DNA of 64,000 bases from Cordylochernes scorpioides. Its lineage: Eukaryota; Arthropoda; Arachnida; Pseudoscorpiones; Chernetidae. The stretch lies in assembly GCA_030710605.1 (NCBI GenBank), contig CP092870.1, positions 16,840,684 through 16,904,683 on the forward strand, in the 5' to 3' direction. The translations under genes and the position numbers were made by a program. The stretch's first letter is position 1. Each line of letters starts with the position of its first letter. The notes below the pieces were generated by a model, which was not told the DNA's origin, made no database searches, and worked only from the letters and a program-made list of their open reading frames with translations. Positions 5,643 through 64,000 of this stretch are shown here, piece after piece.

Positions 5643-5787
5643 TTAAAAATAAAAAAGGCATCTCCTGACCACGAGCACATGTGCTTTTTAGATGGCAGAG
5701 CGCCATCTGGTGGAACAGAAATCAACTAAACATTGATTTAGCCTGTTCCCTGATATTTGGCCAACCCAATTTCTTGATTGCGCCAAA

Positions 5788-5812
5788 AGCGCGAAACGCG
5801 TTCGTGGATGGC
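5788..5812 (+). ncRNA. Decayed hammerhead ribozyme (family D)
   Basis: The right half survives (stem gcgc/gcgc, GAAAC, GCGTT, then cgtgg as in family C and D copies) but the CTGANGA core has become a TTGATTG-like sequence. Probably inactive. It sits in the loop of the fold-back. Confidence 0.45.
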
Positions 5813-6033
5813 TTTTCTTGATTTATCAAGAAATTGGGTTGGAAAAATATGAGGGAACTGGCTAAATCAATGTTTAGTTGATTTCTGTTCCACCAGATGG
5901 CGCTCTGCCTTCTGTAAAGCACATGTGCTCCTGGTCAGGATATGCCATTTTTAATATTGATTTCAACACCTGATCTTTTTATCTTTCATTTTTTCTTTCG
6001 TTTTTTAATATATATATATATAAATAATATATA

Positions 6034-9593: not shown

Positions 9594-9802
9594 TGTTGTA
9601 AGATTTAGGTACTTACAGCTTGTAGGAAGGCATGAGGACGTTGAGGATTATATGATAATAATCTTTATTATCCATTTAGCAAGAAAAGACAAAGTTATGG
9701 TAGCGAACAGTTATTGAAGTATAGAGAAGAAGGTAAACAAACAGTTGTGATGATGATAGGTCCAGTGTGGCGCTAGCTGTCGTAGCATTCAGTTATCCAA
9801 CA
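9594..9802 (-). repeat. copia 3' LTR
   Basis: 209-bp LTR identical to 12398-12606. The gag-pol stop codon lies inside it (9793-9795). Confidence 0.93.
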
Positions 9803-12324
9803 AATCCCCGGCATGAATGTGGAGACATCACGAGGTTGTAGCGTAACTTCTCAAATGTCGGCCTTGGTAGCGGCTTGGTCAGGATGTCCTGAGCTTCAGT
9901 TTTGTACAGCATGTAGTCATTTCTTATGGGAGGTATTCCCTTTGTTGGTCTCGTGGATCTTCTTTGTGTAACCACTTGTGTTCCTGTGCTTGTACTGGGT
10001 TGAAGGTAATCCTCGGTTTCTGAGTCCTCAAGGTTTTCGGGTTGTGCTCCTGGTTCCTGACTTTCCTCTGCATTACCAATATGATTGGAGGAAGTTAGAT
10101 CTGTACTTAGTACTTGTGGTGAAGTTGTTTTTGTGGAAGCGAGGTGAAACCCATTTTCTTTTTCTATAAATTTTACGGATCTGCTGATTGTGATGTTGTC
10201 TGTATCGTGCAGGATTCTGTATCCTTTGCTTCGATCATCGTATCCAAGAAAGATCCCTTCGATAACTTTGCTATCCAACTTGTTTCTTTTTATCTTGGGA
10301 ATATAGGCGAAGGCTTTACATCCGAATCTTTTTAGATGCTTCAGACTGGGCTTCCTGTTGGTCCATAGTTCAAAAGGAGTCTTGTCTGTAGCTTTCGAGG
10401 GTATTCGGTTGTGTAGGTAATTAGCTGTGGTAACCGCTTCCGCCCATAGAGACTGTGGGAGTCCTGAGTCAAACAGCATGCATCTTGTCATCTCCATTAG
10501 TGATCGATTTTTCCTTTCGGCTACTCCGTTCTGGGCTGGTGAGTAGGGGACTGTTAGCTGATGTTTGATTCCGCTTTGGTTCAGGAAATCTTCGACTTGT
10601 CGGTTTACGTACTCACGACCGTTGTCTGTCCGTATGGTTTGGATATTTTTTCCAAATTCCGTGTGTGCTGAGATGACGTAGTCTTTTATTTTTTCATAGA
10701 CTTCGTCTTTTCCTTTCAGGAGGTAGATCTTCGTGTATCTGCTGTAGTCATCAGTGAAGGTGATGAAGTATCTCTTACCGCTGAGAGAGTTAGTTGGTAA
10801 TGGACCGCAGATATCACTGTGGACAAGTTGAAGCGTTTCAGTTGCTCTGTACTCTGTCTTCTTTGGAAATGGGGTTTCGGTGAGTTTTCCTTGAATGCAC
10901 TGAACGCAGTCTGTGCTGTGCGAACAGTTATTTAGACTTAGTCCTCTTGCTAGGTTCTCATTTCGAATCTTCTTAATTGATTCTATATTTCTGTGTCCTA
11001 GTCTGTCGTGCCAGAGCATGAGGCAATTTTTGTTCTTGCAGTGGTTTTGTTTTGCAACATTTGCTTTGAATGTGCGAGTTTGGGGGTTGTCATCCAGGTG
11101 GAGTCGGTACATTCCATTGTCAAGTATACCGTTCGCGAGGGCTGTGTTGTCTCTTTCGATGGTACACCAACCTCTGTTGAACGTTACTTTACATCCGTTG
11201 GAGGTGGCCGCACTCACTGACAGAAGGTTGTCTGTTAGTTCCGGGATGTAGAGAACTTTTGTGAGAAGTAAGGTGTCAGTCTTTCCTTGGGGTGTGATGA
11301 CTTTTATTTCTCCTTGTCCTATCCCTTTGACCTGCAGCTTATTGCCATTAGCAACCACAACATTTTGTGTTTGTTCTCTGTTAAGTTCAGTGAAGAAGCT
11401 TTCATCGTACGCCATATGAGATGTGGCTCCAGAGTCGACGAACCAGTTGTGTACACTTGTTTCTCGTTGAGTGCAATTTAGAGCTTTTGGGTTAGGTCCT
11501 TTTGTTGTTCTCTGGTTTGTGGGTTGTTCTTGGGTGACACTCGACTGATTTGTGTACTTTGGTACGTTTCCTCTTCTGAAGTTTTCATATTTGTACTCTT
11601 TGTTGCTGTTGTTTCGCTTTTGATAGTGCCAACATTCTTCTTTGGAGTGGTTTGGTTTGTGGCAGAAAGAACAGAATTTCTTCTCTTTTTCTCTTCTTTG
11701 GCTTGAAGCTCCGTGGAGGCTTTTTAAGGCTTTTGATTCGGTGCTTTCGTCTTTCGAGCTTTCTACTCTGCGTGTGTGTTCATCAAGGAGTTTGTTCTTG
11801 GTAAATTCAAGCGTTAGCTCGTCATCGGGCCTTGATTCCAACATCGTGATGAGATTGGAGTAGCTCTTTGGAAGCGAGCAAAGCAGTATAGCCGTGATGT
11901 GAGAGTCCCTTAGTGTTTCGCCAATGGTTCGCAGTTTGTCAACAAGTTCCATCATGGTAGTGATGTGCTGTTGCATGTCTTTGTCTTCTTCGAGTTTTAA
12001 GCTGTATAGTTTCCTTAGCAAATAAATTTTTCCTGAGAGTGTTTTTCTTTCATAGATATTTTTAAGAGTGTCCCAGGTAGCTTTGGCTGTTAGTAGGTTT
12101 TTGACATGCACTATTTGTGAGTCGGCGATGCTTAGATTAATGATAGCTCTAGCTTTTGAGTCTTTCTTTTTCCATTCGATTTTAGGTTCATCTGGAATAT
12201 TTTCGGTGACAACATCCCAAAGATCTTCCTTTTGCAAGAGCATTTCAATTTTGAAAGACCATAGTGAGTAGTTATAGCCGTCGAGCTTATTTAGGGTTAC
12301 ATCGTGGCTCGAGAGTGACGCCAT
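9793..12324 (-). CDS. copia Gag-protease-integrase polyprotein, RT deleted
   Basis: 843-residue intact ORF starting at the ATG at 12324, about 75 bp inside the 5' LTR. In order: copia-type Gag (1-200), CCHC zinc knuckle CSFCHKPNHSKEEC (about 216-230), aspartic protease WFVDSGATSH (about 293), the pre-integrase HHCC segment with LWHDRLGH (about 437), and integrase with catalytic D (about 503), D (TDNG, about 565) and E (VAERKN, 35 residues later). The ORF then jumps in frame, near 9900-9915, from the pre-RT linker (RNDYML) straight to the C-terminal tail after RNase H (AQDILTKPLPRPTFEKLR). A usual copia polyprotein is about 1,300-1,500 residues, so RT and RNase H are missing. The protein could still make particles and integrate DNA but would need reverse transcriptase from a related element. 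Confidence 0.93.
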   Translation of the reverse strand: MASLSSHDVTLNKLDGYNYSLWSFKIEMLLQKEDLWDVVTENIPDEPKIEWKKKDSKARAIINLSIADSQIVHVKNLLTAKATWDTLKNIYERKTLSGKIYLLRKLYSLKLEEDKDMQQHITTMMELVDKLRTIGETLRDSHITAILLCSLPKSYSNLITMLESRPDDELTLEFTKNKLLDEHTRRVESSKDESTESKALKSLHGASSQRREKEKKFCSFCHKPNHSKEECWHYQKRNNSNKEYKYENFRRGNVPKYTNQSSVTQEQPTNQRTTKGPNPKALNCTQRETSVHNWFVDSGATSHMAYDESFFTELNREQTQNVVVANGNKLQVKGIGQGEIKVITPQGKTDTLLLTKVLYIPELTDNLLSVSAATSNGCKVTFNRGWCTIERDNTALANGILDNGMYRLHLDDNPQTRTFKANVAKQNHCKNKNCLMLWHDRLGHRNIESIKKIRNENLARGLSLNNCSHSTDCVQCIQGKLTETPFPKKTEYRATETLQLVHSDICGPLPTNSLSGKRYFITFTDDYSRYTKIYLLKGKDEVYEKIKDYVISAHTEFGKNIQTIRTDNGREYVNRQVEDFLNQSGIKHQLTVPYSPAQNGVAERKNRSLMEMTRCMLFDSGLPQSLWAEAVTTANYLHNRIPSKATDKTPFELWTNRKPSLKHLKRFGCKAFAYIPKIKRNKLDSKVIEGIFLGYDDRSKGYRILHDTDNITISRSVKFIEKENGFHLASTKTTSPQVLSTDLTSSNHIGNAEESQEPGAQPENLEDSETEDYLQPSTSTGTQVVTQRRSTRPTKGIPPIRNDYMLYKTEAQDILTKPLPRPTFEKLRYNLVMSPHSCRGFVG

Positions 12325-12397
12325 TTTTGCTAAGCCTTTTTTCTTTGTCTTAACTCGTTAGTTGAATTTCATGCAATATTCAGTCTCATAATCTAAT

Positions 12398-12787: not shown

Positions 12788-12937
12788 TTATAATACAAGA
12801 AAATAAGACCTAATCCAAATAATTTAATAATGTGTGACGTTTCAGCAACAGAATTATCACCATCATCAGACAAAAGAATAAAACACATCATACACTATTA
12901 AATTATTTGGATTAGGTCTTATTTTCTTGTATTATGT
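12788..12937. repeat. Inverted repeat with a hammerhead in its loop
   Basis: Arms of about 40 bp (12789-12830 and 12897-12937, containing aataagacctaatccaaat and its complement) flank a 65-bp loop that carries a hammerhead motif on the minus strand. Small, self-contained unit. Confidence 0.65.
12836..12869 (-). ncRNA. Hammerhead ribozyme motif in fold-back loop
   Basis: Minus strand: CTGATGA (12863-12869), a wobble-rich stem II (TGGTGA...TTGCT), GAAAC then GTC (12836-12843). Stem III would be the bare palindrome ACGT, which cannot close within one molecule but can pair between two. Stem I has only about 3 bp. Core is canonical, fold is weak. Confidence 0.55.
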
Positions 12938-13560: not shown

Positions 13561-14400
13561 TAATACATAGACAATCTTTTAGCTTTATCATTTTGATCTG
13601 TCTAATCATCCATTACTACGCTATAATATTGATATAAAACGGATATAAAATTTTCTATTAGTATTTTCTAACATTTGTAATATAATTCCCATATTTTGTT
13701 GAAAATATCACCATAGCTATGACACAACATGCTTGTAGTATCATTTTTCTAGAAATATATATTCGTTTTATATAAAAAATATCAACGTTGAATGTTTTTC
13801 AAGTTAAAGAAGACAATTTTATGTAAAACACGCAGAAGTGTGTTATAATTATTCACAAATAAAAAGATACATACTTTAAAATAAACAGAGTACAGTTTTA
13901 GGCTAATATTGTTATCTTACAGTGTTGGCCGGTTAAATATATGTTCGCAGAATATTATTTTAGACTTGAAACTTTCCTTTTCAATATACAAGATTACATC
14001 CAATTATAGAAGCATATTTTGGATTTTAAAAATTAAACACTATTTTATCCAATATTTTGATTGACTATTCGCTTTATATTTTCCTCGATGTTCAAGCTTT
14101 AAAACATATATTTCTCAAATTGTAACGGGAACTCCAATTTAACTTATTTTAAAAGGTATCAACTGCATGATATGAAACAAAATTATAAGTTATAAAATTG
14201 ACCAAAATATAAATTCTAGCCATTGTTCTTTGATTAAGGAAAGATTCATTCATTCTTTATCTACCTAATTCCATTCTTCTTTTAAATTTCTGGCTATTAG
14301 TTATTTATCTATGATAAAAATTGAGCAAAATAATTATCGGTTTTTATTTCAAGGATGTTGATGGTTTATTAATTTTCCTGTTATTCTGAAGATAGAAGTT
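13560..14400. other. AT-rich DNA, nothing recognised
   Basis: No coding frame or clear repeat structure seen. Confidence 0.5.
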
Positions 14401-14462
14401 GCCTGGCCAGCATTCATATTTCTGTGAAAAATAGACACTTAGGCCAGTTAGAGTTTTTTATA

Positions 14463-14506
14463 TCTTCTCAACATTTCAACAAAAATATTTTGTCTTCATC
14501 AGGAGA
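14463..14506 (-). ncRNA. Hammerhead ribozyme motif (family A)
   Basis: Minus strand: stem I TTCTC/GAGAA, CTGATGA (14496-14502), stem II GACAAAA/TTTTGTT with an extra A before it, GAAAT, GTT (14470-14477). The GAAAC has become GAAAT, so activity is doubtful. Confidence 0.5.
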
Positions 14507-14589
14507 AATAAATAAAAATGAAGCATTTGGCAAGGCGTTAAAAATCTCAGAACATTTTTTAACGCCTTGCCAAATGCTTTGTATTTATT

Positions 14590-14636
14590 TCCCATGACAA
14601 AGACAAAATATTTTTGTTGAAACGTTGAGAAAATAA
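14590..14636 (+). ncRNA. Decayed hammerhead (family A, opposite arm)
   Basis: The 3' half is intact (GAAACGTTGAGAAAA) and stem II survives, but the core reads CATGACAAAG instead of CTGACGAAG. Inverted partner of 14463-14506. Confidence 0.45.
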
Positions 14637-14973
14637 AAAAAAACTCTAACTGGACGAAGTGTCTATTTTTCAAAGAAATAAGTTTTCCTATTGTAATAAA
14701 TATTTGCTGTAATAAAGCTTATAAATAGGTAAACCCTATAGATCACTCCAGAAGATGTAGTGATGAGTTGCAGTAGAATCTCTTCTTGGCAATTATGACT
14801 CTATCATCTCGAAATAAAACGCAGATTTGTTGTAGAAAAGATAATCTTTGATATGTAGTGATGTGAATTCGTCATATATAGTTATGAACCGACCAAAAGA
14901 TTCATTCGGATTACGCCTGAATAAAGTCAATCTCAGATGAAATATTCAACCAACTGATGGTTTTGATCTAAGT

Positions 14974-15502: not shown

Positions 15503-15545
15503 CGCTGACGAGGGCAAACAGCCCGAAACGCATTCGTGGATGACT
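15503..15545 (+). ncRNA. Hammerhead ribozyme motif (family D)
   Basis: CTGACGA (15505-15511), stem II GGGC/GCCC with loop AAACA, GAAAC, GCATT. Core and stem II are canonical. Stem III has lost its palindrome (ACGCAT) and stem I is cut off by the TA repeat, so this copy is probably inactive. Confidence 0.6.
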
Positions 15546-15710
15546 TTTCTTGATTTATCAAGAAAATTTGTTGGCCAAATATTAGGGAACAGACTAAATC
15601 AACGTTTAGTCGATTTCTGTTCCACTAGATGGTGCTCTACCATATAAAAAACCCATGTGCTCGAGGTCAGGATATGTTTCTTTGATTTTATTACCAACAC
15701 ATGACTTTTT
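15503..15710 (+). repeat. Family D hammerhead retroelement end
   Basis: Starts at a hammerhead, then hairpin tttcttgatttatcaagaaa, then gttccactagatggtgctct and catgtgctcgaggtcagg. The fold-back at 4868-6015 is built of two such ends. The 5' side is cut off by a TA microsatellite. Confidence 0.65.
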
Positions 15711-15818
15711 TAATAATATTATTTTTTAAAAATTATTTTTTCACACACACACACACACTCGGCCGTGCGGCCACGCGTCGCGCGAGCTCCGTGTTTTTCG
15801 CCTCTGGCGAGCGATGAA

Positions 15819-20235: not shown

Positions 20236-20890
20236 TGCCATTATTTTCTATTTTTCTTAAATGAAAATACCACGTCATTCTGTGTATTTCAGCATTTACT
20301 AAATCCCTGTAGTGTAAATATTCGTCGAGTTATTAATTTCGAAGTGTGTTTTGTACGAGACACTCCCTGAAAAGAATGAAAAAAGGTCCAATTGATTATC
20401 TAGTCGAGCATATTAAAAGTTAATTAATTATAAATATTGTTGATTTGATTAGTTTAGATTAATTACATATATAAGTAAAGTTTAATTAAAAATAAATTAA
20501 AACAGGAGTTCAGCTTTATATATATATTAAAAATTGAATATGTAAAAATGTACACGCTACAGGAAGCTGGGATAATAAAAGAGAATATATAAAAGGTAAA
20601 CCTTCTATATACTTAATTATAAATATGATGGCATTTTTTGATGTGTCTTTGAATTAATTATATTGAGTTTTAATATGCTTAAATTAATTAAAATGGAGAA
20701 TATGAATTTTACTTTCTATTCTAAAAATAATTATCCATCTATGAGATACCATTTGAGAGAAAAACTTCCATCCAGGGAAGAGTCTCTCGAAAAAAATAAA
20801 ATATAATTAACTCACGTTTTCGAGCCTTAGAGCCATTTTACAAAAGCAATGTTAAATACAAATATATTATCATCACATATTATCATCGTA
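20236..20890. other. AT-rich DNA, no gene seen
   Basis: No coding frame, TIR or RNA motif recognised. Confidence 0.5.
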
Positions 20891-21060
20891 AAGATAGAGG
20901 CTGCCTGGCCGGCATTCATATTTCTTGAAATTAAAGATACTTCGGCCAGTAAATCTTTTTATTACCTCGACGTTTCGACAAAAATCTTTTGTCTTCGTCA
21001 GGAGCAAACAAGAGGCTTCCTCAAGAGGCTATATATTTTCGACCCGCCAAAGAATAGCTT
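20890..21060 (-). repeat. Family A hammerhead retroelement end
   Basis: Contains gatagaggctgcctggcc, cttcggccag and the hammerhead at 20966-21004 in the same order as at 44312-44450. Confidence 0.65.
20966..21004 (-). ncRNA. Hammerhead ribozyme (family A)
   Basis: Minus strand: stem I CTC/GAG extended across a symmetric 2-nt internal loop, CTGACGA (20995-21001), extra A, stem II GACAAAA/TTTTGTC with a 3-nt loop, GAAAC, GTC (20969-20976). All core residues are present. Stem III is the palindrome ACGT. The predicted cut is after GTC. Confidence 0.7.
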
Positions 21061-21328: not shown

Positions 21329-21536
21329 TACTTCAACACATGTTCAAAAGAAATAATTTAAAAAAAAGGAGAAGTTCAGATATCATTTTTTTTATGCTGA
21401 ACATATATATATACAATGTTACATTTGTACTATTTTTTCACATTGTGTAGCGTCCTCACGCAATTCTGGCCTTAACTACCCGTTTCATGATTTTTCAGGA
21501 TGCCTTAATGACCAATTTTTTGGTCGTTGAGGTACA

Positions 21537-21589
21537 GCTTGCATCACGCTGATGAGGGCCAAACAGCCCGAAACGCGTCCGTGGTTAGC
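21537..21589 (+). ncRNA. Hammerhead ribozyme (family C), well preserved
   Basis: Stem I: CACG/CGTG plus GCT/AGC across an internal loop (TGCAT/GTT). Core CTGATGA (21549-21555). Stem II GGGC/GCCC with loop CAAACA. GAAAC (21570-21574), GC, GTC (21577-21579), predicted cut after 21579. Every conserved position fits. The stem I internal loop and stem II loop are the kind that make the tertiary contact in natural hammerheads. Stem III (ACGCGT) is palindromic. Confidence 0.85.
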
Positions 21590-21780
21590 TTTTCTTGATT
21601 AATCAAGAAAGGGTATTTGGCCAATTCTGGAATAATTAAAAATCAACGAGAATAGTTGATATTTATACCGATAGATGGCGCCAGGCATCAGCAACTTTCA
21701 GTTGCACGATAAGGAGATGCCTTTTTCTTAATATATATAAGCATTTAAGTATTTTACTGTCATAAACTTACATTCAATCA
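21537..21780 (+). repeat. Family C hammerhead retroelement end
   Basis: Hammerhead, then hairpin tttcttgattaatcaagaaa, then atagatggcgccaggcatc and cagttgcacgataaggagat. The last part recurs as a palindrome at 41935-42075. The hairpin after the hammerhead is shared with family D. Confidence 0.65.
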
Positions 21781-24165: not shown

Positions 24166-25580
24166 CACTGTATAACAAAAAAATCGACGCACCAAGAAGG
24201 AGTTGTCAGATTAGGACAAAAATTGGTGTATGTAAAGAGCATGTATAGGGGAAAAAACGATTAAAATTTCAGAACAATTAATTGTTTTATTTCAGAGTTT
24301 GATCGTCACAAATTGAGAATGTCAATATGTCGTTGGACCCCCACTGGCCTGGATTCAGGCTGCCACCCGGCGTGTCACGGACTGATAAAGATTCCGGATG
24401 GTCTGCTTCGGGATTTCTTCCCAAATTGTCTCCAACTGTCGGGCTAAATAGTCAACATTCCGGGATGGTTGCAATCGCCTTCCCATCAAGTCCCAGATGT
24501 GCTCTATGGGCGAGAGATCATGCGACCTTGCTGGCCACGGAAGAGTTCGGCAAGATTGAAGACAATCCATAGTAACACGTGCCGTGTGTGGCCGGGCATT
24601 ATCTTGTTGAAAAGTAAGCCCGGGGTGATGTGAGAGGAACGGCAACAAAACAGGCCGTAGAATGTCATCTACGTACCGTTGTGCTGTCAGGGTGCCAGGA
24701 ATGACTACCAATGGGGTCCTGCTATCAAATAAAATGGCACTCCAGACCATAACGCCCTGTTGTGGACCTGTGTAGTGTTCGACAGTAAGGCCAGGATCCA
24801 CACGCTGCCCAGGACGTCTCCAGACACGTTTGCAACGGTCGTCAGGGCACAGTAAGAAACGGGACTCGTCACTAAAGACTATACGTCCCCAGTCAGCGCA
24901 GTTCCAAGTTGATCGCTCCTGACACCACTGTAGTCGGACTTGTCGGTGCACGGGTGTGAGGGGTAGGCATCGTAACGGTCGGCGAGCTCTTAGATTCCGC
25001 TCTCTCAGTTGCCTGTTGATGGTCATTTTGGACACTTGTGTGCCGGTCACACGTTGGATGGTAGATAACGTGGATTCCGGTGCTGCGACAGCCATTCTGA
25101 CAATTGCTCTGTCCTCCCGTTCTCTTGTTGTCCTTGGTCGACCGCTGCCGTCCTGACGTTGCATACTTCCGTTGTTGACCCACTTTTGCCAACATCGCCT
25201 AATAGCCGCATCACTTCGACACACAGATGTCGCGCGATTAGACCAACCAGCCTCTTTCAATCCAATGGCACGACCAGTTTCAAACTCTGACATATGTTCG
25301 TAATGAGCACGAATATTTCGGCGAGGCATTGATACAGTAGAAATAGGCGTACTGCTAAAATATTAAACGGAAATTCTGAAAATCAGCTCGTGCCGCGCCG
25401 AATATTGAGTCGAGAATGCTCGTGCTGGATGCGCAGTTCAGATGCGCTGGAGCTCTTGCTTAGCATAATTCGGCTACCAAATTTCAATCATTTGCATGTT
25501 TGGTCGAAACCTCTTTGTATACGTATTTTCATATAAATCGGACAACTGCTTCTTGGTGCGTCGAGTTTTTTGTTATAGAG
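24166..25580 (-). mobile_element. Nearly intact Tc1-like transposon
   Basis: 1,415 bp bounded by TIRs (left cactgtataacaaaaaaatc, right end reads ctctataacaaaaaactcg in reverse, both then gacgcaccaagaag) and TA target duplications at 24164-24165 and 25581-25582. Encodes one transposase. Confidence 0.9.
24355..25329 (-). CDS. Tc1-family transposase, slightly truncated
   Basis: 324 residues from an ATG (MPRRNIRAHYE). N-terminal paired-like helix-turn-helix DNA-binding region (residues 1-110), then the DDE domain: first D in VFSDESRF (about 154), second D in QQDNARPH (about 244), E in SPIEHIWD (about 276). I count 32 residues between the last two, against 34 in Tc1 itself. The frame ends RRVAA-stop, and reading through that TGA gives IQASGGPTTY and a second stop, so a TGC-to-TGA change probably removed the last 11 residues, counting the lost cysteine. 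It would cut and paste the element at TA sites if active. Confidence 0.9.
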   Translation of the reverse strand: MPRRNIRAHYEHMSEFETGRAIGLKEAGWSNRATSVCRSDAAIRRCWQKWVNNGSMQRQDGSGRPRTTREREDRAIVRMAVAAPESTLSTIQRVTGTQVSKMTINRQLRERNLRARRPLRCLPLTPVHRQVRLQWCQERSTWNCADWGRIVFSDESRFLLCPDDRCKRVWRRPGQRVDPGLTVEHYTGPQQGVMVWSAILFDSRTPLVVIPGTLTAQRYVDDILRPVLLPFLSHHPGLTFQQDNARPHTARVTMDCLQSCRTLPWPARSHDLSPIEHIWDLMGRRLQPSRNVDYLARQLETIWEEIPKQTIRNLYQSVTRRVAA

Positions 25581-26930: not shown

Positions 26931-27480
26931 ATAGTTTTTGTTAAATAATATCCGATGATAGATTAATAAAACACCATTTCGTCAAAAGTAGAAGAATTGT
27001 GTGACAATTTATAAATGTAATCCGATATATGTAAAATAGGTGAATGTAAATTAAAACATGCAGCAAATAAAATATTTTATATGCGATTGGTTGGGATTCT
27101 CAACGAATTAAATTTGAAGATAATACAATTTTCCACACTTTAAATTAAAAATGATCAATATATGTAATTCACAGAATATGCAAAATAGATGAGCCTGAAA
27201 TTGAATTAAATTTTGGTTTGCTTCTTATTAGAGAAAACATATAAATATTTTAATACCTTTCTTATAAAAAACTTCGCATTCCAAACTATACTTTTTTTAA
27301 TACTATATAATATAAATAATATATGTTCGATCTATAAAAATATTTTATATTAAATTCAAAACTTGATCAAAAATATACTTGGTAAATAATTCATTCCAAT
27401 AGATTTTTCAGCAAATGTATTTTTTAAATTCAAATTAGTTCATTTAATTTATTTTGGCTCATTAAAAAACAATATTACCC
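26930..27480. other. AT-rich DNA, no gene seen
   Basis: No coding or repeat structure recognised. Confidence 0.5.
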
Positions 27481-27484
27481 TATA

Positions 27485-27925
27485 TCTGATCTAAAAAGAC
27501 AAAGGTCGCCTCTCCCGTCAAAATATACTTCAAAGCCAGACGCCATCTTTGACGTCTATTTTGACGGGAGAGGCGACCTTTGTCTTTTTAGATCTATATC
27601 TAGCCGGAAAAATTTCAATTTATTTTTCAGCCATAGATATGGCCTAGCCACTAAGCCAGCTAAACACCTCTTTGACAGATTGTCAAGATTCCATTAGATC
27701 CCTTGTGGATCTCATGGAATAAAGTCCGCCCTAGACTGACGAGGGCCATTAGTTCGAAACCATGGTCTCTAGGTGGACGCTTTTCAGTTTGCCAAAGCTG
27801 GTGTTGTGCTTTGTTACCGATCCGAGGCCGCTAGTTTGCGGCGACGGTCAATAGATGGCGTCTATTTTGACGGGAGAGGCGATCTTTGCCTTTTTAGATC
27901 AATATCCTCCCGGCAAAATTTCCAT
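27485..27925 (+). repeat. Family B hammerhead retroelement with direct repeats
   Basis: A tail of about 66 bp (gtctattttgacgggagagg, then tttttagatc and a gcaaaatttccattta-like end) occurs as direct copies at 27555-27623 and 27857-27925, 302 bp apart, and once inverted at 27485-27525. The hammerhead (27724-27778) lies between the direct copies. A further tail without hammerhead lies at 34130-34290. The pattern (hammerhead within a repeat unit bounded by direct copies) resembles Penelope pseudo-LTRs or retrozymes. Confidence 0.7.
27724..27778 (+). ncRNA. Hammerhead ribozyme (family B), complete
   Basis: Stem I: CCTAGA/TCTAGG (6 bp) and GTCC/GGAC (4 bp) across an internal loop (GC/T). Core CTGACGA (27736-27742). 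Stem II GGGC/GTTC with two G-U pairs and a CATTA loop. GAAAC (27756-27760), CATG, GTC (27765-27767), predicted cut after 27767. Stem III ACCATGGT is an 8-base palindrome. All conserved bases are present. Confidence 0.88.
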
Positions 27926-27989
27926 TTATACCCTATATCTGATAATACTTTTATTCTGGAATGCTATCCCTACAGAATAATGCAAACCT

Positions 27990-33060: not shown

Positions 33061-34120
33061 AGCTATATATACCTTGTTAATCTTTTTTATTATCTTCTGT
33101 CTCATTGTCTTTCTCTCACATTATATATATATATATTTAAATAGTTCTTCCTCAATAGACTGTTATAAAGCATCCACATATACAGGACCTATCATTAGCT
33201 TTCTTGATATGATAAAAGGCGTTATGGCACGTCAAGGTCTCTTTGTCGAATTCTGAATATTTTATGTAGCAAGATATCTTATATATTGATATATTTAAAA
33301 TGTTTTATATACTTTCAATTATGTTTTATAGAAATTAAACCCTCCTGAAAAGTAAGCATTACAATATTCTAAGCAATGTGTTGAAAGAAAAATAATATTT
33401 TCAATATACTTCTATATATGCAAGAGAATTTGTGAGAATCCCAGGGAATTACACCATCTGCACTCTATATCCTCGCTGGTGGAAACTTAGCAATCAACGC
33501 AAAAATCCGCGAATGCAAATGAAATTTCCTCGAGGAATATCCCAGAAATCCAACATATTTCGATGCAAATATGCTGGAAACAATCAACCTCCAAATTTAC
33601 ACATATCATATGAATATTTTATTATTCATCAACCTATCTTGCATACAAAAGTAAATTAGTGAATAAATATTTTATTTGATTCCAGTTGAATCAGTCTATA
33701 GAGCCATTCCTAGTCTGGATCACTGAAAATTTGAAATACTTAAAGCATTTACTTTGGGCAGAAAATCTGCCTTCCTAAAGTGTACTGAAGAGTAGAAGCC
33801 AACGTGAACCAATCAGGATTGTTGATTTTATATTTGAGGAAATTAAAATGACCCCGCAAAAAGGGTAGCAAATGCTTAACTTAATGACGGAAATGACTAA
33901 TTTTCAAAATTCTATTCAGATTTTGCGATTAATTTTTAAATATACCTCTAGACCACCTAGAATTCTAAATTTTATACACCCTTTCAATAGAGCTATCAAA
34001 GCTAGATTACAAAATATTATGCTTTTATTCAAAACATTTGTTTTTCTTAATACACGCAACACACAAACATTTACATTTAACGTATATAAATATGAATATA
34101 TTTCTAGAAGAGAGAGGATA
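33060..34120. other. AT-rich DNA, no gene seen
   Basis: A 113-codon frame at 33872-34213 has no recognisable motif and runs into a repeat tail, so I treat it as chance. Confidence 0.45.
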
Positions 34121-34129
34121 TTGATCGAT

Positions 34130-34290
34130 AAAATTGAAGGTCACCTCTTCTGTCAAAATAGAGGAGAAACTAAGCGCTATCTATTGACTTTGTCACCGAG
34201 CCGAGTCCGCTAGTTTGCGGAGACGGTCAGTAGCCGGCGTTTAGTTTTTGAGTCCATTTTGACGGAAGAAGTGAACTTTATTTTTATGTA
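34130..34290 (+). repeat. Family B tail fragment
   Basis: Carries gtccgctagtttgcgg, ggtcagtag and ttttgacggaagaagtgaac as in the tail at 27800-27900, in the same order, without the hammerhead. Confidence 0.6.
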
Positions 34291-38782: not shown

Positions 38783-38818
38783 CGCGAGCTTTCGGGCTGG
38801 AGCCGCCCTTCTACAGGC
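38783..38818 (-). ncRNA. Hammerhead-like hairpin of a Penelope-like element
   Basis: Minus: CCTGTAGAAGGGC, loop GGCTCCA, GCCCGAAAGCTCGC. The stem GGGC/GCCC is perfect. It is located about 185 bp after the GIY-YIG reading frame, which ties family E hairpins to Penelope-like elements, known to carry hammerheads in their pseudo-LTRs. Confidence 0.5.
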
Positions 38819-39001: not shown

Positions 39002-39500
39002 TATGATTTGGATAAGCGAAAGATATGATTTTTGTGGTATGGAATATGGCAAAATTGTTCAGGGATATCTATTCTACGATTAATGCTATTGTGTTGTTTG
39101 GAGATCAGCGATTCAAGGATTAATCTTTCGGATTTGGTGGTTATGTTACTGTAGTTGCACAAGTTGGACTATCTAAATTAAATTTGTGGCCGGTATTAAT
39201 GGTATGCTGAAAAATGAGGGACCTAGGATCTTTGGTTTTCATATTGTAAGTATGCTCTTTCAATCTTGTTATAATTTTCCTGCCTGTTTCTCCGACGTAT
39301 ATAGATGGACAATCAATGCATGACACGGAATAAATGGCGTTTTTCTTCTGTAGGGGGTTCTGATCTGTGGGCGATTTTGTGATGGGATTTCTAAGGATAT
39401 TGCCGATGGTTCTTGGGGTCCGGAAAAAGAACTTGATGCCGTATTTATTTATTTCCAGGGCTATTTTTGAATTGGTTGGTGAGTGGTTAGTGGGTGAAGA
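39002..39500 (-). pseudogene. Penelope-like GIY-YIG endonuclease domain
   Basis: The frame reads FRTPRTIGNILRNPITKS, then IYSVSCIDCPSIYVGETGR, IITRLKEHTYN and IFQHTINTGHKFNLD: the CxxC-IYVGETGR-RxxEH pattern of the GIY-YIG domain that closes Penelope-like polyproteins. A frameshift near 39145 moves the tail to another frame (SERLILESLISKQHNSINRR and on to a stop near 39002). In an intact element this domain nicks target DNA for retrotransposition. Confidence 0.85.
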
Positions 39501-39504
39501 AGCT

Positions 39505-39771
39505 CTGCGCCTTGTAGGAACCATCGTAGCGCGGTAGTTCCACTTCTCGCGATAGTCCGGTCGCCGCGGACAGCTGATGTAGCGTCCTCGCCAAACTCCC
39601 CAGGACATCTGATACCACCGGCGGGGGCGTGGCGTCCTCCTGGCTGGGGGCGACTTCCTGCGTCCTACCGAGGGTGTTTTCTATCTTGGGAAACGTGGTG
39701 TTTTCGCCACTTTCATAGTCGGGATCGGACTCCATGGGCTCCTTTGGATCCTCCTCTCTTCCTTGTTCCAT
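39505..39771 (-). pseudogene. LTR retrotransposon gag, N-terminal fragment
   Basis: From ATG at 39771: an acidic leader (MEQGREEDPKEPMESDPDYE), then LSREVELPRYDGSYKAQSFF, the opening of a gypsy-type Gag. It breaks off at the Penelope-like junction. The upstream 400 bp look like its LTR and leader. Confidence 0.6.
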
Positions 39772-40469: not shown

Positions 40470-40605
40470 CATATATATATATATGAAAAAACAATAGAAA
40501 AAAATAAAAGATAAGTGGGTCAGGTGTTGATATTAAAAATAAAGAAGGCATCTCCTGACCACGAGCACATGTGCTTTTTAGATGGCAGAGCGTCCATTTC
40601 AGGAA
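40470..40605. repeat. Family D fragment, uninterrupted
   Basis: Same as the left arm at 4868-5700 without the Helitron: gataagtgggtcaggtg, ttgatattaaaaataaag, gcacatgtgct, agatggcagagcg. It serves as the empty-site reference. Confidence 0.7.
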
Positions 40606-41179: not shown

Positions 41180-41930
41180 AATAATATAAATATAATATTT
41201 TTATATTTATATATACTGCAAAAGTAATTTATAGCTAATAAAAAACATCAATTGCATATAACAAGACCAAATGATACCATTCCACGAACTACACAACAAT
41301 AGCGAAGTAACAGAGCTACAAATACGGAGAAGGGTTTAAAAACCAAGATGATGGTATACTACTACAGAACTACACACATCGTGGTACTGAATTAGTCTCT
41401 CTTGTATTTAAATAATTTAGTGCCAGATGCGGGGCCATAAAAGACGAACTGGAGTGGCGTTGTTTTATAGCCAACAGATAGGAGCTTTTAGGGCTAATTT
41501 ATTGAACTTGTGGTTCAGCGAGAGAGAGAGCTCTTGGAGGATTTATAGACCTTCCTATCATCAAACCTTTATTTATTTCTTCGTTTCCCGCACCTCGCCC
41601 ACCATTGATCGTCTGAATGGGCCACCATTTCCCTGTTTATTACATCGATATATTCAAATCATCTTCACTGAGTCCTTTTTCAAACAAATATAAAGAACGT
41701 ATTTGTTTTTTTTTTCTGTAGGATTCATGTGATTAATATTTGAAACTATATCTAACGAACCTTTGTACCTATATAAAAATGAGTTGTGTTATTAGTAAAG
41801 GTGGATTTTTGGGTGCAGAAGCTTTTGTTTTAATATAAATTTATGAAACTCATGCTGAAAATGCCTAAAACTAAAATTATATTGTGAAAAAATAGTACAA
41901 ATGTGATATTGTACTGGAATAAAGTTCATC
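41180..41930. other. No gene seen
   Basis: AT-rich. An 88-codon frame at 41427 has no recognisable motif. Confidence 0.45.
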
Positions 41931-42080
41931 GCCTCATCGTGTAACTGAAAGTGTCTGATGGCTTGTGCCATCTATCGGAATAAATATCAACTATTTGTTA
42001 ATTATTTTGGAATAATAGATGGCGTAAGCCATCGGCAACTTTCAGTTGCACGATAAGGAGATACCTTTTTTTCTTTTCTT
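41930..42080. repeat. Family C palindrome
   Basis: Inverted arms of the family C tail (cagttgcacgataaggagat, split as ttgcacgataag and gagat; gatggcttgtgccatctatc), without the hammerhead. Confidence 0.6.
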
Positions 42081-42384: not shown

Positions 42385-42490
42385 CTTGCAACCTCAGAAC
42401 AATTTAACACCTTGCCAAATGCTTTATTATTATTTATTTCTCCTGACGAGGACAAAAGATTTTTGTCGAAACGTAGAGAAAATCTCCAAG
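42385..42490 (+). repeat. Family A hammerhead retroelement end
   Basis: caccttgccaaatgcttt, hammerhead, then gtagagaaaat. Same order as at 14548-14640. Confidence 0.65.
42436..42482 (+). ncRNA. Hammerhead ribozyme (family A), complete core
   Basis: Stem I TTTCTC/GAGAAA (6 bp), CTGACGA (42443-42449), extra G, stem II GACAAAA/TTTTGTC with loop GAT, GAAAC (42468-42472), GTA (42473-42475), predicted cut after 42475. Cleavage base A is permitted in hammerheads. Stem III (ACGT) has no loop in one molecule. Confidence 0.7.
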
Positions 42491-44311: not shown

Positions 44312-44450
44312 CCTTAATAGAGGTTGCCTGGCCGGCATTCATATTTCTTTAAAATAGACACTTCGGCCAGTTAGAGATATATTTTCTCAACGTCTCAACA
44401 AAAATCTTTTGTCTTCGTCAGGAGAAAATAAAATATATTGTTAAACATTT
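44312..44450 (-). repeat. Family A hammerhead retroelement end
   Basis: tagaggttgcctggccggca, gacacttcggccagttag, hammerhead, then ggagaaaataaaat. Confidence 0.65.
44381..44429 (-). ncRNA. Hammerhead motif (family A), one core change
   Basis: Stem I ATTTTCTC/GAGAAAAT is a perfect 8 bp. CTGACGA at 44415-44421, stem II GACAAAA/TTTTGTT. GAAAC has become GAGAC (44389-44396 region), which should abolish cleavage. Confidence 0.55.
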
Positions 44451-53550: not shown

Positions 53551-53557
53551 ACAATCC

Positions 53558-53897
53558 AGAGGTTAGAAGTGCCAAGGAAGGCTACGGCCCCAGAGGTTAG
53601 AAGTGCCAAGGAAGGCTACGGCCCCAGAGGTTAGAAGTGCCAAGGAAGGCTACGGCCCCAGAGGTTAGAAGTGCCAAGGAAGGCTATGGCCCCAGAGGTT
53701 AGAAGTGCCAAGGAAGGCTACGGCCCCAGAGGTTAGAAGTGCCAAGGAAGGCTATGGCCCCAGAGGTTAGAAGTGCCAAGGAAGGCTATGGCCCCAGAGG
53801 TTAGAAGTGCCAAGGAAGGCTATGGCCCCAGAGGTTAGAAGTGCCAAGGAAGGCTATGGCCCCAGAGGTTAGAAGTGCCAAGGAAGGCTATGGCCCT
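53558..53897. repeat. 34-bp minisatellite, ten units
   Basis: Ten tandem copies of agaggttagaagtgccaagg + aaggctaYggcccc. The only variation among the first nine is C or T at the Y (a CpG site). Order C,C,C,T,C,T,T,T,T,T. The last unit ends in a T instead of C. Confidence 0.97.
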
Positions 53898-54049
53898 AGA
53901 AAAAGAGTGTTGTCACTTCTCGAGCAATAAGATTGACCAGTGGGACGGCATCCTGTTTGATAGCTTAAACCGAACTGTTTTTAACAAGCCCCTTATATTC
54001 ATGATGAAATTGTGAAAAACGTCTAAAAATACAAAATAAATTTATCACA

Positions 54050-61004: not shown

Positions 61005-64000
61005 CTAGTCCTTCGAGTCATACCTTGCAGGCTTTCTGATTACCCTACCATATCTATTTCTAGAGTCCCTGGATTCAATATTGGGCCTATTTCCTAAAAA
61101 TGCATCAGATTGGGGTTCGGTATTTGAATTGTCCATTTGAATCGTCTTAACATTCGAGGATATTTCAAGAGGGTGTAAGCGTTGTAGAGCCCTGATCAAG
61201 GTTCCTGTGGATGTTTTAACATGGGCCACTCTCACTATTCCATCTTTTCCTGGTATGAGATTTACTATTCGCCCTTTAGGCCAAAACATTCTTTTAAGAT
61301 TTTCTTGCCCGATCAGTACAACGTCTCCTACTTTCAACTGTCTTCTATCAATATTTTCGGATTTCTGAATAAGCGCGCCTAAATATTCCTTTAAGAATCT
61401 CTGCTTCAATTCTCTCTTCAGTTGACCTAACTCTCTGTATCTAGTGTGCAACATTTCTGGCTTTAAATTTTCAAATTCAGGAAAGCTAGACTCTGGACCA
61501 TTTTGTAAAAACTCATTAGGAGTTAACGGTTTTAGATCATTGTCGTCTTCAGAGACATAAGTGAGGGGTCGATTATTAATGTTGGTTTTCATAATGTTTT
61601 CTTCAACATTTATTTCTTTTGGATTTATCGAGAATTCTGAATTGGGCCAGAATTCTTTAGGTTTTTTCAACCATTCTGGGCCCTCCCACCATCTGCTTTG
61701 CACAAACTGGCTTGGAGGGCAACCTCGAGACAGAAGATCGGCCGGGTTCAACTGACTAGGAACGAACCTCCAATCGTTCAAATTGGTAGTGGCCTGTATT
61801 TCTCTGACTCGGTTTCTCACGAAAACTCTCCACTCAATTTCTTTCTTTATCCAACTTAGCGCGGTAGTAGAGTCAGACCAAAGAGTTGTTTCACATTTTC
61901 TCTTCAAGGCAGCTTGGATTGCATTGGCTAGTCTAGCTCCTAGTACCATGGCCATTAATTCCAAGCGAGGGATCGTAATACTCTTCATAGGAGCTAATAT
62001 GACTTTGCTCCAAATCAAAGTTAGAGTATTTTCTCGTCCCGTTTCGCTCCGTAAATAGGCTACAGCTCCATAGCCTATTTGACTAGCGTCACAAAAGATA
62101 TGAACTTCTGTAGGGAAAATGAGATCATTCCACATATATCTCGGTATCTTTATTAACTCTATTAATTTTATTTGATCCAACCAGGTTCGAAATTCCTGGG
62201 CCATACTTTCGGGTAGTGGTGTATCCCAACCTAGTTTCAGTCCCCATGATCGCTGCAGTAACAACTTTGGTGTCAAGAATACTGGAGCGCAAAATCCAAG
62301 TGGATCAAATATCCGCTGAACCATGGACAGTACCAACCTTTTCGTTAATTTGGGTTGAAGACTCAAATTGTCAGGGAGTTCGCATTTTAATGAATCTTCC
62401 ATTTTATTCCAAACAACACCCAATATTTTTGTACAAGTCCCCTTTTCAGGGTTTTCCTCCAGAGAATATTCCCACTCTCGTAAGTCCATTTTAGCCCTGT
62501 CCATAATTTCAATTGCGGCCTTTTGAAATTCCTGCACTTCCTGCTTGGTTTCCAGCGAGGTAATACAATTGTCCATGTAGAAGGATTGAGCTAAAATCTT
62601 TGCCCATTGAACAAGTGGGCCTCTTATTGATTGAAGATGGTATTCTATTACGGCGTTCAGCACAAAAGGACTACAGTTTAAGCCAAATACAAGTCTCTTA
62701 TGCCTGTAAGCTATTAGTTCTCTATCGCTCTCCTTTTCCCACCAAAGGAATCTAAGATAGTTCCGTTCAGATTCTTCAATCGCCACCATCTGGAATGCTT
62801 TTCTTATATCTGCCGTGACTCCAAATTTATTTTCCCGAAATCTTATCATCATTTCAGGGATTCTTTCCAATAAATTCGGTCCCTTTTCTAAACATTGATT
62901 CAAAGATAGTCCATTATGACCTAGACAAGAAGCATCGAAAACCGAACGTATGGGCGTCGTTTTAGATTCCATCTTGTACACAGGGCGGTGAGGTAAATAA
63001 TAGCCTCTTCTCTCGAGAGGATTTTCCTCGACTCTTTCAATGAGTCCCTCAGTCAGCCAGTCTCTAAAGACCTGACTATATTCGGTCAACTTATTCTGTG
63101 AGGTCATTTTCTTAGTGCTTATATCTAACCTTTTTATCGCTATGTCAAGATTGCTGGGGATTGACTCCTTTTCTACCTTCCAAGGTAGACCTACAGAATA
63201 TCTCTGATCACTTTGTCTTTGAATTTTTGTTATAAACTTTTCTTTTATTTCCTGATATCTGGTCTCTTTGGAGCAAGTTTCAACAGGATCCCTAATGCCT
63301 AGTACTTCTAGATCCCACAAATCCTTTAAATCGCATCGCGTTGTTAGCAGATTCAAAGTCTGCTGCACATTGTCATTGCTATCAATAATTGGCGAATTGC
63401 CCATTAGTGTCCAACCTAATTTCGTTTCCACCGCAGTTAAATCTGCTTCAACTTGAACTATTTTTCCTGTCAAAATCATACCTAGATAGTTAGCACCAAT
63501 CAATATGTCAATCTCTTGTCCTTTAAAATTGTCCTGAGACAATATTATGCCCTTAATCTTCAATTTTTCTAACCAATCTCCTTTTGGCAAAGGTGGTATG
63601 GCGTCGCAAATTTTACGTTGATCCAGCGCCTCAATATGGATCACATCTCTTTTATTACCTAAATTCTCTAATTCTAACATAAATTTACCGTGCTTTTCTT
63701 CACCAATCTTATTACCTCCAAAAAGACTTTTAGCTATAGTTATTTCGCCTTTTCTTTCTATTCCTATACTCCAGACTAACGACTGTTTGATATACGAAAA
63801 CTGACTTCCACTGTCGAGGAGAATTCTAACCCTTCTAGAGGCATTTGGGCCTCTTAACAGTGCTACCGTGGTCATCAGCAAGACCTGACCTGTGCAGGCT
63901 TGACTAGAAAGCGATGCAATGGGTTCAGTTGCATTTTCCTTTGGATTTTCTCTTCCCGGTTTCGTTAACCGGTTAGAAGAATTTCCTTCACATAAAACTT
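61005..64000 (-). CDS. BEL/Pao Pol, integrase core deleted (partial)
   Basis: Open from the window edge (reading LCEGNSSNRLTKPGRENP from 63995) to the stop at 61005, about 998 codons. In order: aspartic protease (RILLDSGSQFSYI, 63830-63785), reverse transcriptase (PIRSVFDAS; TADIRKAF; catalytic box SFYMDN near 62575), RNase H (HIFCDASQIGYG near 62095; LWSDSTTALSW near 61870; NPADLLSRG), then directly the BEL C-terminal DUF5641-like domain (PLTPNEFL, LKVGDVVLI, RALQRLHPLEI). The integrase zinc finger and DDE core that normally separate the last two are missing in frame near 61560-61600. A particle-internal polyprotein that could copy RNA but not integrate alone. Gag lies outside. Confidence 0.92.
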   Translation of the reverse strand, partial: VLCEGNSSNRLTKPGRENPKENATEPIASLSSQACTGQVLLMTTVALLRGPNASRRVRILLDSGSQFSYIKQSLVWSIGIERKGEITIAKSLFGGNKIGEEKHGKFMLELENLGNKRDVIHIEALDQRKICDAIPPLPKGDWLEKLKIKGIILSQDNFKGQEIDILIGANYLGMILTGKIVQVEADLTAVETKLGWTLMGNSPIIDSNDNVQQTLNLLTTRCDLKDLWDLEVLGIRDPVETCSKETRYQEIKEKFITKIQRQSDQRYSVGLPWKVEKESIPSNLDIAIKRLDISTKKMTSQNKLTEYSQVFRDWLTEGLIERVEENPLERRGYYLPHRPVYKMESKTTPIRSVFDASCLGHNGLSLNQCLEKGPNLLERIPEMMIRFRENKFGVTADIRKAFQMVAIEESERNYLRFLWWEKESDRELIAYRHKRLVFGLNCSPFVLNAVIEYHLQSIRGPLVQWAKILAQSFYMDNCITSLETKQEVQEFQKAAIEIMDRAKMDLREWEYSLEENPEKGTCTKILGVVWNKMEDSLKCELPDNLSLQPKLTKRLVLSMVQRIFDPLGFCAPVFLTPKLLLQRSWGLKLGWDTPLPESMAQEFRTWLDQIKLIELIKIPRYMWNDLIFPTEVHIFCDASQIGYGAVAYLRSETGRENTLTLIWSKVILAPMKSITIPRLELMAMVLGARLANAIQAALKRKCETTLWSDSTTALSWIKKEIEWRVFVRNRVREIQATTNLNDWRFVPSQLNPADLLSRGCPPSQFVQSRWWEGPEWLKKPKEFWPNSEFSINPKEINVEENIMKTNINNRPLTYVSEDDNDLKPLTPNEFLQNGPESSFPEFENLKPEMLHTRYRELGQLKRELKQRFLKEYLGALIQKSENIDRRQLKVGDVVLIGQENLKRMFWPKGRIVNLIPGKDGIVRVAHVKTSTGTLIRALQRLHPLEISSNVKTIQMDNSNTEPQSDAFLGNRPNIESRDSRNRYGRVIRKPARYDSKD

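What the first reader, a model, noticed from the sequence alone, without database searches (positions are those of the whole stretch)
27724..27778. Textbook hammerhead ribozyme between direct repeats (family B)
Every conserved base of the hammerhead core is present, stem I is 6+4 bp across an internal loop, and the cut site GTC is intact. It lies in a 302-bp unit bounded by direct copies of a 66-bp tail (27555 and 27857). I see no protein in the unit. Hammerheads between direct repeats are known from Penelope-like pseudo-LTRs and plant retrozymes. A protein-free animal unit would be a candidate retrozyme-like element.
Basis: partly seen in the sequence, partly recalled or inferred. Interest (0 to 1): 0.8.

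Follow-up and report, generated by a model that had tools for sequence, protein, structure and literature searches.

The report
Ribozyme retroelement moved by Penelope machinery
The hammerhead ribozyme belongs to a protein-free mobile element of about 320 bases with thousands of copies in this animal genome, and the way its copies end suggests that Penelope-type retrotransposons insert it, which bears on the open question of what moves such animal 'retrozymes'.

Summary
The hammerhead (27724-27778) is real: all core bases are present, and a strict descriptor finds it while 200 shuffles give none. It lies in a 438-bp insertion flanked by a perfect 15-bp duplication. The genome has 25,391 places within 3 mismatches of its core, and two fetched head-to-tail arrays of about 320-bp units without protein. 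It is a metazoan non-LTR retrozyme, a known kind.

The new part is how copies end. Inserts stop at one of two sites about 33 nt apart downstream of the ribozyme; many begin with an inverted arm whose outer end is also at one of these sites. In 32 of 35 readable two-armed inserts one end carries the 33-nt tail and the other lacks it. Penelope-like elements of the same genome show the same rule in 9 of 9 inserts, 8 of them independent. A published Penelope protein has two RT start sites and extends both strands (PMC11167929). I infer that Penelope machinery mobilises this retrozyme from circular or multimeric RNA. Cleavage, circles and the enzyme are untested.

The parts
27476..27490 (.). left target-site duplication TACCCTATATCTGAT
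   Evidence: exact 15-mer repeated at 27929-27943
27491..27547 (-). inverted arm of the insertion; its outer (left) end is at RT start site 1 (no tail); inner end approximate
   Evidence: 48-nt inverted repeat, 96%; outer end read against the duplication
27548..27623 (+). end of a first, 5'-truncated unit, including the tail; the direct run goes on without a break into the next unit
   Evidence: direct run of 397 unit positions, more than one 320-bp unit; repeat 27550-27623
27624..27928 (+). one complete unit (306 bp here; about 320 bp in relatives); no protein
27724..27778 (+). type I hammerhead ribozyme, predicted cut 27767^27768, palindromic stem III ACCATGGT
   Evidence: sequence; descriptor and shuffles; core intact in 51 of 57 family members
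27899..27900 (+). site 1: where untailed ends of relatives stop
   Evidence: end clusters u279-299
27901..27928 (+). the optional tail between site 1 and site 2; site 2 is the right end of this insertion
   Evidence: end clusters u309-u8
27929..27943 (.). right target-site duplication
34114..34285 (+). second, truncated copy: inverted tail fragment, then the 3' part of a unit; no ribozyme
   Evidence: blastn matches

Best explanation
It is one insertion of a high-copy, protein-free metazoan non-LTR retrozyme of about 320 nt. Proposed cycle: tandem copies are transcribed; the hammerhead, as a monomer or as a dimer through its palindromic stem III, cuts the RNA into units that are ligated into circles (inferred). 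A Penelope-like RT/GIY-YIG protein binds the region downstream of the ribozyme, cuts both strands of AT-rich DNA with about a 12-nt stagger, and starts reverse transcription from both DNA ends at two fixed internal sites, one end at site 1 and the other at site 2 about 33 nt further on (inferred). One cDNA runs round the circle or along the multimer, usually for more than one unit; the other is shorter and appears as the inverted arm; the two are joined. The result is an inverted arm plus a direct run with one tailed and one untailed end. Shown here: the copies, the tandem units, the duplications, the two end sites, the one-tailed rule, and the same rule in Penelope-like inserts of the same genome. 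Inferred: cleavage, circles, and the enzyme.
For: Copies: 25,391 core matches with up to 3 mismatches, 0 for the reversed pattern. Tandem units. Duplications in 26 of 48 inserts against a mean of 1.32 (max 4 in 60 rounds) when flanks of different loci are paired; commonest length 12; AT 0.83 over 27 duplications, L037 included. Right ends at site 1 or 2 in 48 of 48 inserts by the alignment windows; outer ends of inverted arms in 30 of 31. Complementary ends in 28 of 31 and 4 of 4. Direct runs longer than one unit in 42 of 49 inserts; 2 of 188 segment ends near the ribozyme cut. Penelope-like inserts of the same genome: 9 of 9 with one tailed and one untailed end, 8 independent, duplications of 12-13 bp in 5 of 6. 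Published Penelope protein: two internal RT start sites, 30-40 bp tail, both strands extended, AT-rich target (PMC11167929).
Against: No RNA or protein experiment. The unit has no detectable homology to the Penelope loci, and terminal similarity is weak: 26 and 76 of 300 shuffles reach the two scores; shared 12-mers are in register near site 1 for unit-Penelope (3 of 3), but 0 of 2 for unit-family C and 0 of 13 for unit-family A. Seventeen of 48 inserts do not begin with an inverted arm. Exceptions L014 and L087, and L027 by alignment. End windows were set after the ends had been seen. No LINE inserts were examined as a control. The ribozyme is not clearly more conserved than its surroundings: core 0.011, ribozyme 0.020, but the neighbouring block u81-100 0.007. 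Covariation is weak (two double changes; 36 of 500 shuffles reach it).
Confidence: 0.75

Rival explanations
1. The unit is simply the solo or tandem pseudo-LTR of an autonomous Penelope-like family not found here, not an independent retrozyme.
For: Same layout and ends as Penelope inserts; solo pLTRs and pLTR-driven mobilisation in trans are described (PMC3846280, passages).
Against: Arrays of bare units with the ribozyme in each; no frame of the Penelope family tested in or beside the fetched B loci and no match of the unit in 31 Penelope loci. Only one Penelope family was tested; others were not searched.
Confidence: 0.14
2. A LINE moves the element, and the inverted arms are ordinary twin-priming products.
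For: Target duplications of 10-19 bp also fit LINEs; a 15-bp duplication of Nematostella repeats was likened to LINEs (PMC4918200, passage). PMC7229834 names LINEs as possible.
Against: Outer ends of inverted arms lie at the same two sites as the right ends in 30 of 31, whereas twin priming should start at varied internal places (recalled); one tailed and one untailed end in 32 of 35.
Confidence: 0.06
3. A decayed satellite or palindrome-prone repeat spread by DNA-level recombination or snap-back synthesis; the ribozyme is a relic.
For: Arrays exist; self-priming is discussed for Penelope palindromes (PMC3846280, passage); in 6 of 26 inserts the own arm is strictly the closest.
Against: Dispersed inserts with duplications; the two arms are often no more alike than copies at different loci (20 of 26); core intact in 51 of 57.
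Confidence: 0.05

Closest known systems
Metazoan non-LTR retrozymes (Cervera and de la Pena 2020, PMC7229834)
   Same: Type I hammerhead, protein-free units of a few hundred bp, tandem copies, GC under 50%, duplications longer than 4 bp, self-paired circle predicted.
   Different: Here the insert ends are resolved: two sites, inverted arms, one tailed end. Circular RNA and cleavage are shown there and not tested here.
Penelope-like elements (PMC11167929, PMC3846280)
   Same: Hammerhead upstream of two RT start sites, optional tail of about 30 nt on one of two inverted ends, partial tandems, AT-rich targets, duplications near 12 bp.
   Different: No RT/GIY-YIG frame in the unit; hammerhead with a loop in stem III instead of the minimal form; no sequence homology found to the Penelope family examined.
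Plant LTR retrozymes (PMC4918200)
   Same: Protein-free hammerhead element with a proposed circular RNA intermediate.
   Different: Those have type III hammerheads in LTRs and 4-bp duplications.

Membership tests
Metazoan non-LTR retrozyme | type I hammerhead with intact core | tested here: met
   window copy; 51 of 57 family members
Metazoan non-LTR retrozyme | units of 150-450 bp in head-to-tail copies | tested here: met
   306 bp here, 319-320 bp in L025 and L026
Metazoan non-LTR retrozyme | no protein | tested here: met
   longest stop-to-stop frame 68 aa in a concatemer
Metazoan non-LTR retrozyme | GC below 50% and target duplications longer than 4 bp | tested here: met
   GC 0.4875 in the L026 unit; duplications 10-19 bp in 26 of 48
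Metazoan non-LTR retrozyme | highly self-paired circle | tested here: met
   circular MFE z -6.66, 0 of 100 shuffles as stable, L026 unit
Metazoan non-LTR retrozyme | no PBS or PPT | not tested
   not searched
Metazoan non-LTR retrozyme | self-cleavage and circular RNA | not testable with these tools
   no RNA data
Penelope-like element (autonomous) | RT plus GIY-YIG frame | tested here: not met
   one Penelope frame (L070) searched in 66 B loci: none at E 1e-3
Penelope-like element (autonomous) | two RT start sites / optional 30-40 bp tail, one of two inverted ends | tested here: met
   32 of 35
Penelope-like element (autonomous) | minimal hammerhead without stem III loop | tested here: not met
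   stem III A-C / CATG / G-U
Plant LTR retrozyme | type III hammerhead in LTRs, 4-bp duplications | tested here: not met
   type I layout; duplications 10-19 bp
Rfam hammerhead families | covariance-model score at gathering level | tested here: not met
   no hammerhead match at this site up to E 10

The most novel reading that the evidence does not exclude
Animal retrozymes are, in working terms, Penelope-like elements without a reading frame: minicircles that keep the ribozyme and the two RT start sites. Each insertion is a concerted two-ended event in which one DNA end primes at site 1 and the other at site 2, often on two different RNA molecules. That would name the machinery that mobilises retrozymes, and read a two-strand Penelope mechanism out of genomic copies. 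(That retrozymes may descend from Penelope-like elements has been suggested in print, PMC11722881, passage; the shared insertion signature is what is new here.)
Probability: 0.55. Interest if true: 0.75.

Novelty: new member of a known kind. Interest (0 to 1): 0.6.

Why it matters
PMC7229834 and PMC7761336 name Penelope-like elements as likely candidates to move animal retrozymes, on the grounds of shared type I hammerheads, tandem copies and co-occurrence; a 2024 review (PMC11722881, passages) still says LINEs or Penelope-like elements. Insert ends give a test that needs only genome sequence: two sites, and one tailed end per insert. This genome passes it for one retrozyme family. The same ends agree with the in-vitro finding that a Penelope protein cuts and extends both strands, and suggest that each strand uses a different start site. 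I found no paper that shows this signature for retrozymes in the searches; the library lacks most subscription papers.

Tried and rejected
Rfam search of the window, the unit and three relatives' loci: no support for this ribozyme; the many miRNA-family matches are palindromes under their cut-offs. Folding of the bare 55-mer: not informative, since the core is not modelled. Exact 20-mer of the tail: 0 in viral contigs; 1 in an alphaproteobacterial MAG, where only those 20 bases match the unit: taken as chance. Homology between unit and Penelope loci: none. Terminal similarity: only suggestive. Of eight comparisons of Penelope ends with retrozyme units, the lowest shuffle counts are 18 and 26 of 300, the others 76 to 296; tail strings score well for B against C and one Penelope tail (0 and 6 of 2000), but I chose their starts by eye, mostly at AATAT, which biases this; register test mixed. 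Snap-back as the general source of inverted arms: not supported. Genome-wide copies of family A were only counted as first-look candidates (6,722); their ends were not examined.

Full report
What is there. The hammerhead at 27724-27778 is as described: CTGACGA, GAAA and GTC are in place, stem I is 6+4 bp, stem II is GGGC/GTTC with two wobbles, and stem III is the palindrome ACCATGGT. A strict descriptor finds two hammerheads in the window, 21549 and 27736, and none in 200 dinucleotide shuffles. Rfam does not report this one, nor those in three relatives' loci.

The insertion. The ribozyme sits in a 438-bp insertion, 27491-27928, flanked by the perfect 15-mer TACCCTATATCTGAT. From left to right: an inverted arm (27491 to about 27547), the end of one unit (27548-27623), and a complete unit (27624-27928) with the ribozyme in it. 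The direct repeats are 306 bp apart. A shorter copy lies at 34114-34285.

The family. The window's own genome is held: 2.62 Gb in 24 contigs. The unit query gave 4,841 first-look candidates, 40 of them scored, with 72 matches. The 32-base core with up to 3 mismatches occurs 12,620 + 12,771 times, and 0 times when the pattern is reversed. I fetched 39 loci around the best matches, which favours complete copies, and nine plus ten picked by position among the first 100 exact matches on contig C1. L025 and L026 each hold three full units and one partial unit head to tail, 319-320 bp apart. The core is intact in 51 of 57 ribozymes. Among 50 aligned units the mean minor-letter frequency is 0.011 in the core, 0.020 in the ribozyme, 0.026 upstream and 0.035 downstream; but the 20-nt block just upstream (u81-100) has 0.007, so the ribozyme does not stand out. 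On 44 sequences (34 distinct) 97.1% of cells pair and two pairs show double changes, a number that 36 of 500 shuffles also reach. One unit folded as a circle is far more stable than its shuffles (z -6.66; 0 of 100).

Template. Against a 320-bp reference unit, 42 of 49 inserts have a direct run longer than one unit, four of them 781-960 nt, and 2 of 188 segment ends lie within u140-149, around the cut after u144. So most templates ran through the cut site: circles or uncut multimers. The four units of L025 share a loop change not seen in the other loci, as expected if one circle was copied repeatedly, though later array growth would give the same.

Ends. Right-hand ends fall at u279-299 (site 1) or u309-u8 (site 2) in 48 of 48 inserts (details). 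L037 (duplicate of L021) and L082 (left end outside the stretch) were left out. Of the 48, 31 begin with an inverted arm, and its outer end is at site 1 or 2 in 30 of 31. The two ends are complementary, one at each site, in 28 of 31 (15 + 13). Exceptions: L014 (outer end at u97), L027 (both called site 2, though the duplication found puts its right end at site 1) and L087 (both site 1). In the later ten, 4 of 4 readable two-armed inserts are complementary (L093, L094, L095, L098; L096 is cut, five have no inverted arm), so 32 of 35 in all. If ends were independent and equally likely, 32 or more of the 34 inserts with both ends at a site would have a probability of about 3.5e-8 (hand calculation); the end windows were set after the ends had been seen. 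Seventeen of 48 do not begin with an inverted arm. Duplications pass the score in 26 of 48, against 1.32 on average (max 4) when flanks of different loci are paired; the commonest length is 12.

Penelope-like elements. The window holds a remnant of a GIY-YIG element (39010-39680, minus strand; GIY-YIG 20.4 bits, under the cut-off of 22.6; frame match to L070). In a relative, L071, GIY-YIG passes its cut-off and RVT_1 is just under (28.7 against 29.6). The family is abundant (37,787 first-look candidates, 150 scored). In 31 loci and the window a hammerhead-like motif pattern gave 36 hits, L050 being the window's own copy. Copies end about 54 nt after the motif or about 30 nt later. Nine inserts have both ends readable: L051, L054, L057/L058, L059/L060, L064/L065, L073, L074, L075 and L080. 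All nine have one tailed and one untailed end (L059 was read by eye because the pattern missed it). L057/L058 and L059/L060 share flanks and are one insertion duplicated, so 8 of 8 independent. Duplications of 12-13 bp were found in 5 of 6 measured (not L054; no shuffled control). A third family, short elements with minimal hammerheads (window family C), has the tail at one end only in 4 of 4 fetched loci, read by eye; in L103 the untailed end stops short of site 1.

Mechanism. PMC11167929 (abstract passage and section 3) shows a purified Anolis Penelope protein that starts reverse transcription inside the RNA at two adjacent sites, identifies the 30-40 bp tail with the stretch between them, prefers AT-rich DNA, and cuts and extends both strands. 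It also finds that ribozyme mutants do not affect insertion in vitro and that uncut RNA is the main substrate there. PMC3846280 (passages) describes a 31-bp tail on one of two inverted pLTRs and head-to-head inverted repeats, best read there as self-priming. The retrozyme inserts match this layout. The two arms of an insert are somewhat more alike than arms of different loci (mean divergence 0.046 against 0.074), yet the own arm is strictly the closest in only 6 of 26. This favours starts on separate RNAs in many inserts over snap-back of one cDNA, with a shared source in some. Sequence sharing with Penelope is weak: no homology of the unit to the 31 Penelope loci; terminal comparisons reached by 26 and 76 of 300 shuffles. 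The only three 12-nt windows with at least 10 identities between unit and Penelope end, of 30,996, lie in register near site 1; for unit against families C and A the counts are 0 of 2 and 0 of 13, for Penelope against C and A 4 of 9 and 10 of 32.

Known or new. Animal retrozymes with type I hammerheads, tandem 150-450 bp units and circular RNA are established (PMC7229834: abstract, one sixth of the text, sections 14 and 17, passages), and a putative one from a tick was drawn in 2016 (PMC4918200, passage). So this is a new member of a known kind. The insertion signature shared with Penelope-like elements is not in the passages I read on retrozymes; searches. Cervera and de la Pena 2014 (not held) and Lunse 2017 were not seen.

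Noticed in passing
window 15503-15712, 21412-21726, 5646-5981, 40519-40591, 41883-42070: Family A: other short elements, two with canonical hammerheads (15505, 21549), also with inverted arms (5646-5778 against 5782-5981); 6,722 first-look candidates in the genome.
   Followed up: partly
window 14389-14680, 20883-21011, 42403-42483, 44317-44432; L100-L103: Family C: about 130-bp elements with a minimal hammerhead (stem III only the palindrome ACGT in intact copies), palindromic inserts, tail at one end.
   Followed up: partly
window 38786-38816 (minus) and copies in L051-L080: The Penelope family carries CTGTAGA where the hammerhead core has CTGANGA, in 34 of 36 hits (the search pattern itself held CTGTAGA); perhaps an inactive or variant ribozyme.
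   Followed up: partly
window 12790-12935; L070 2092: Another palindromic repeat with a hammerhead-like core and GAAACGTC, also seen beside a Penelope copy in L070.
   Followed up: no
window 27850-27860, 15627-15637, 21671-21681: Families A and B share TAGATGGCG or a near variant ahead of the tail; it resembles a CTCF core motif as I recall it.
   Followed up: no
window 53556-53900: Near-perfect tandem array, about 10 copies of a 34-bp unit (98% matches), unexplained.
   Followed up: no
window 9793-12357, 24355-25359, 61005-63998: Long frames of transposable elements: one Copia-like by eye, one Tc1-like transposase and one Pao-type polyprotein by Pfam.
   Followed up: partly
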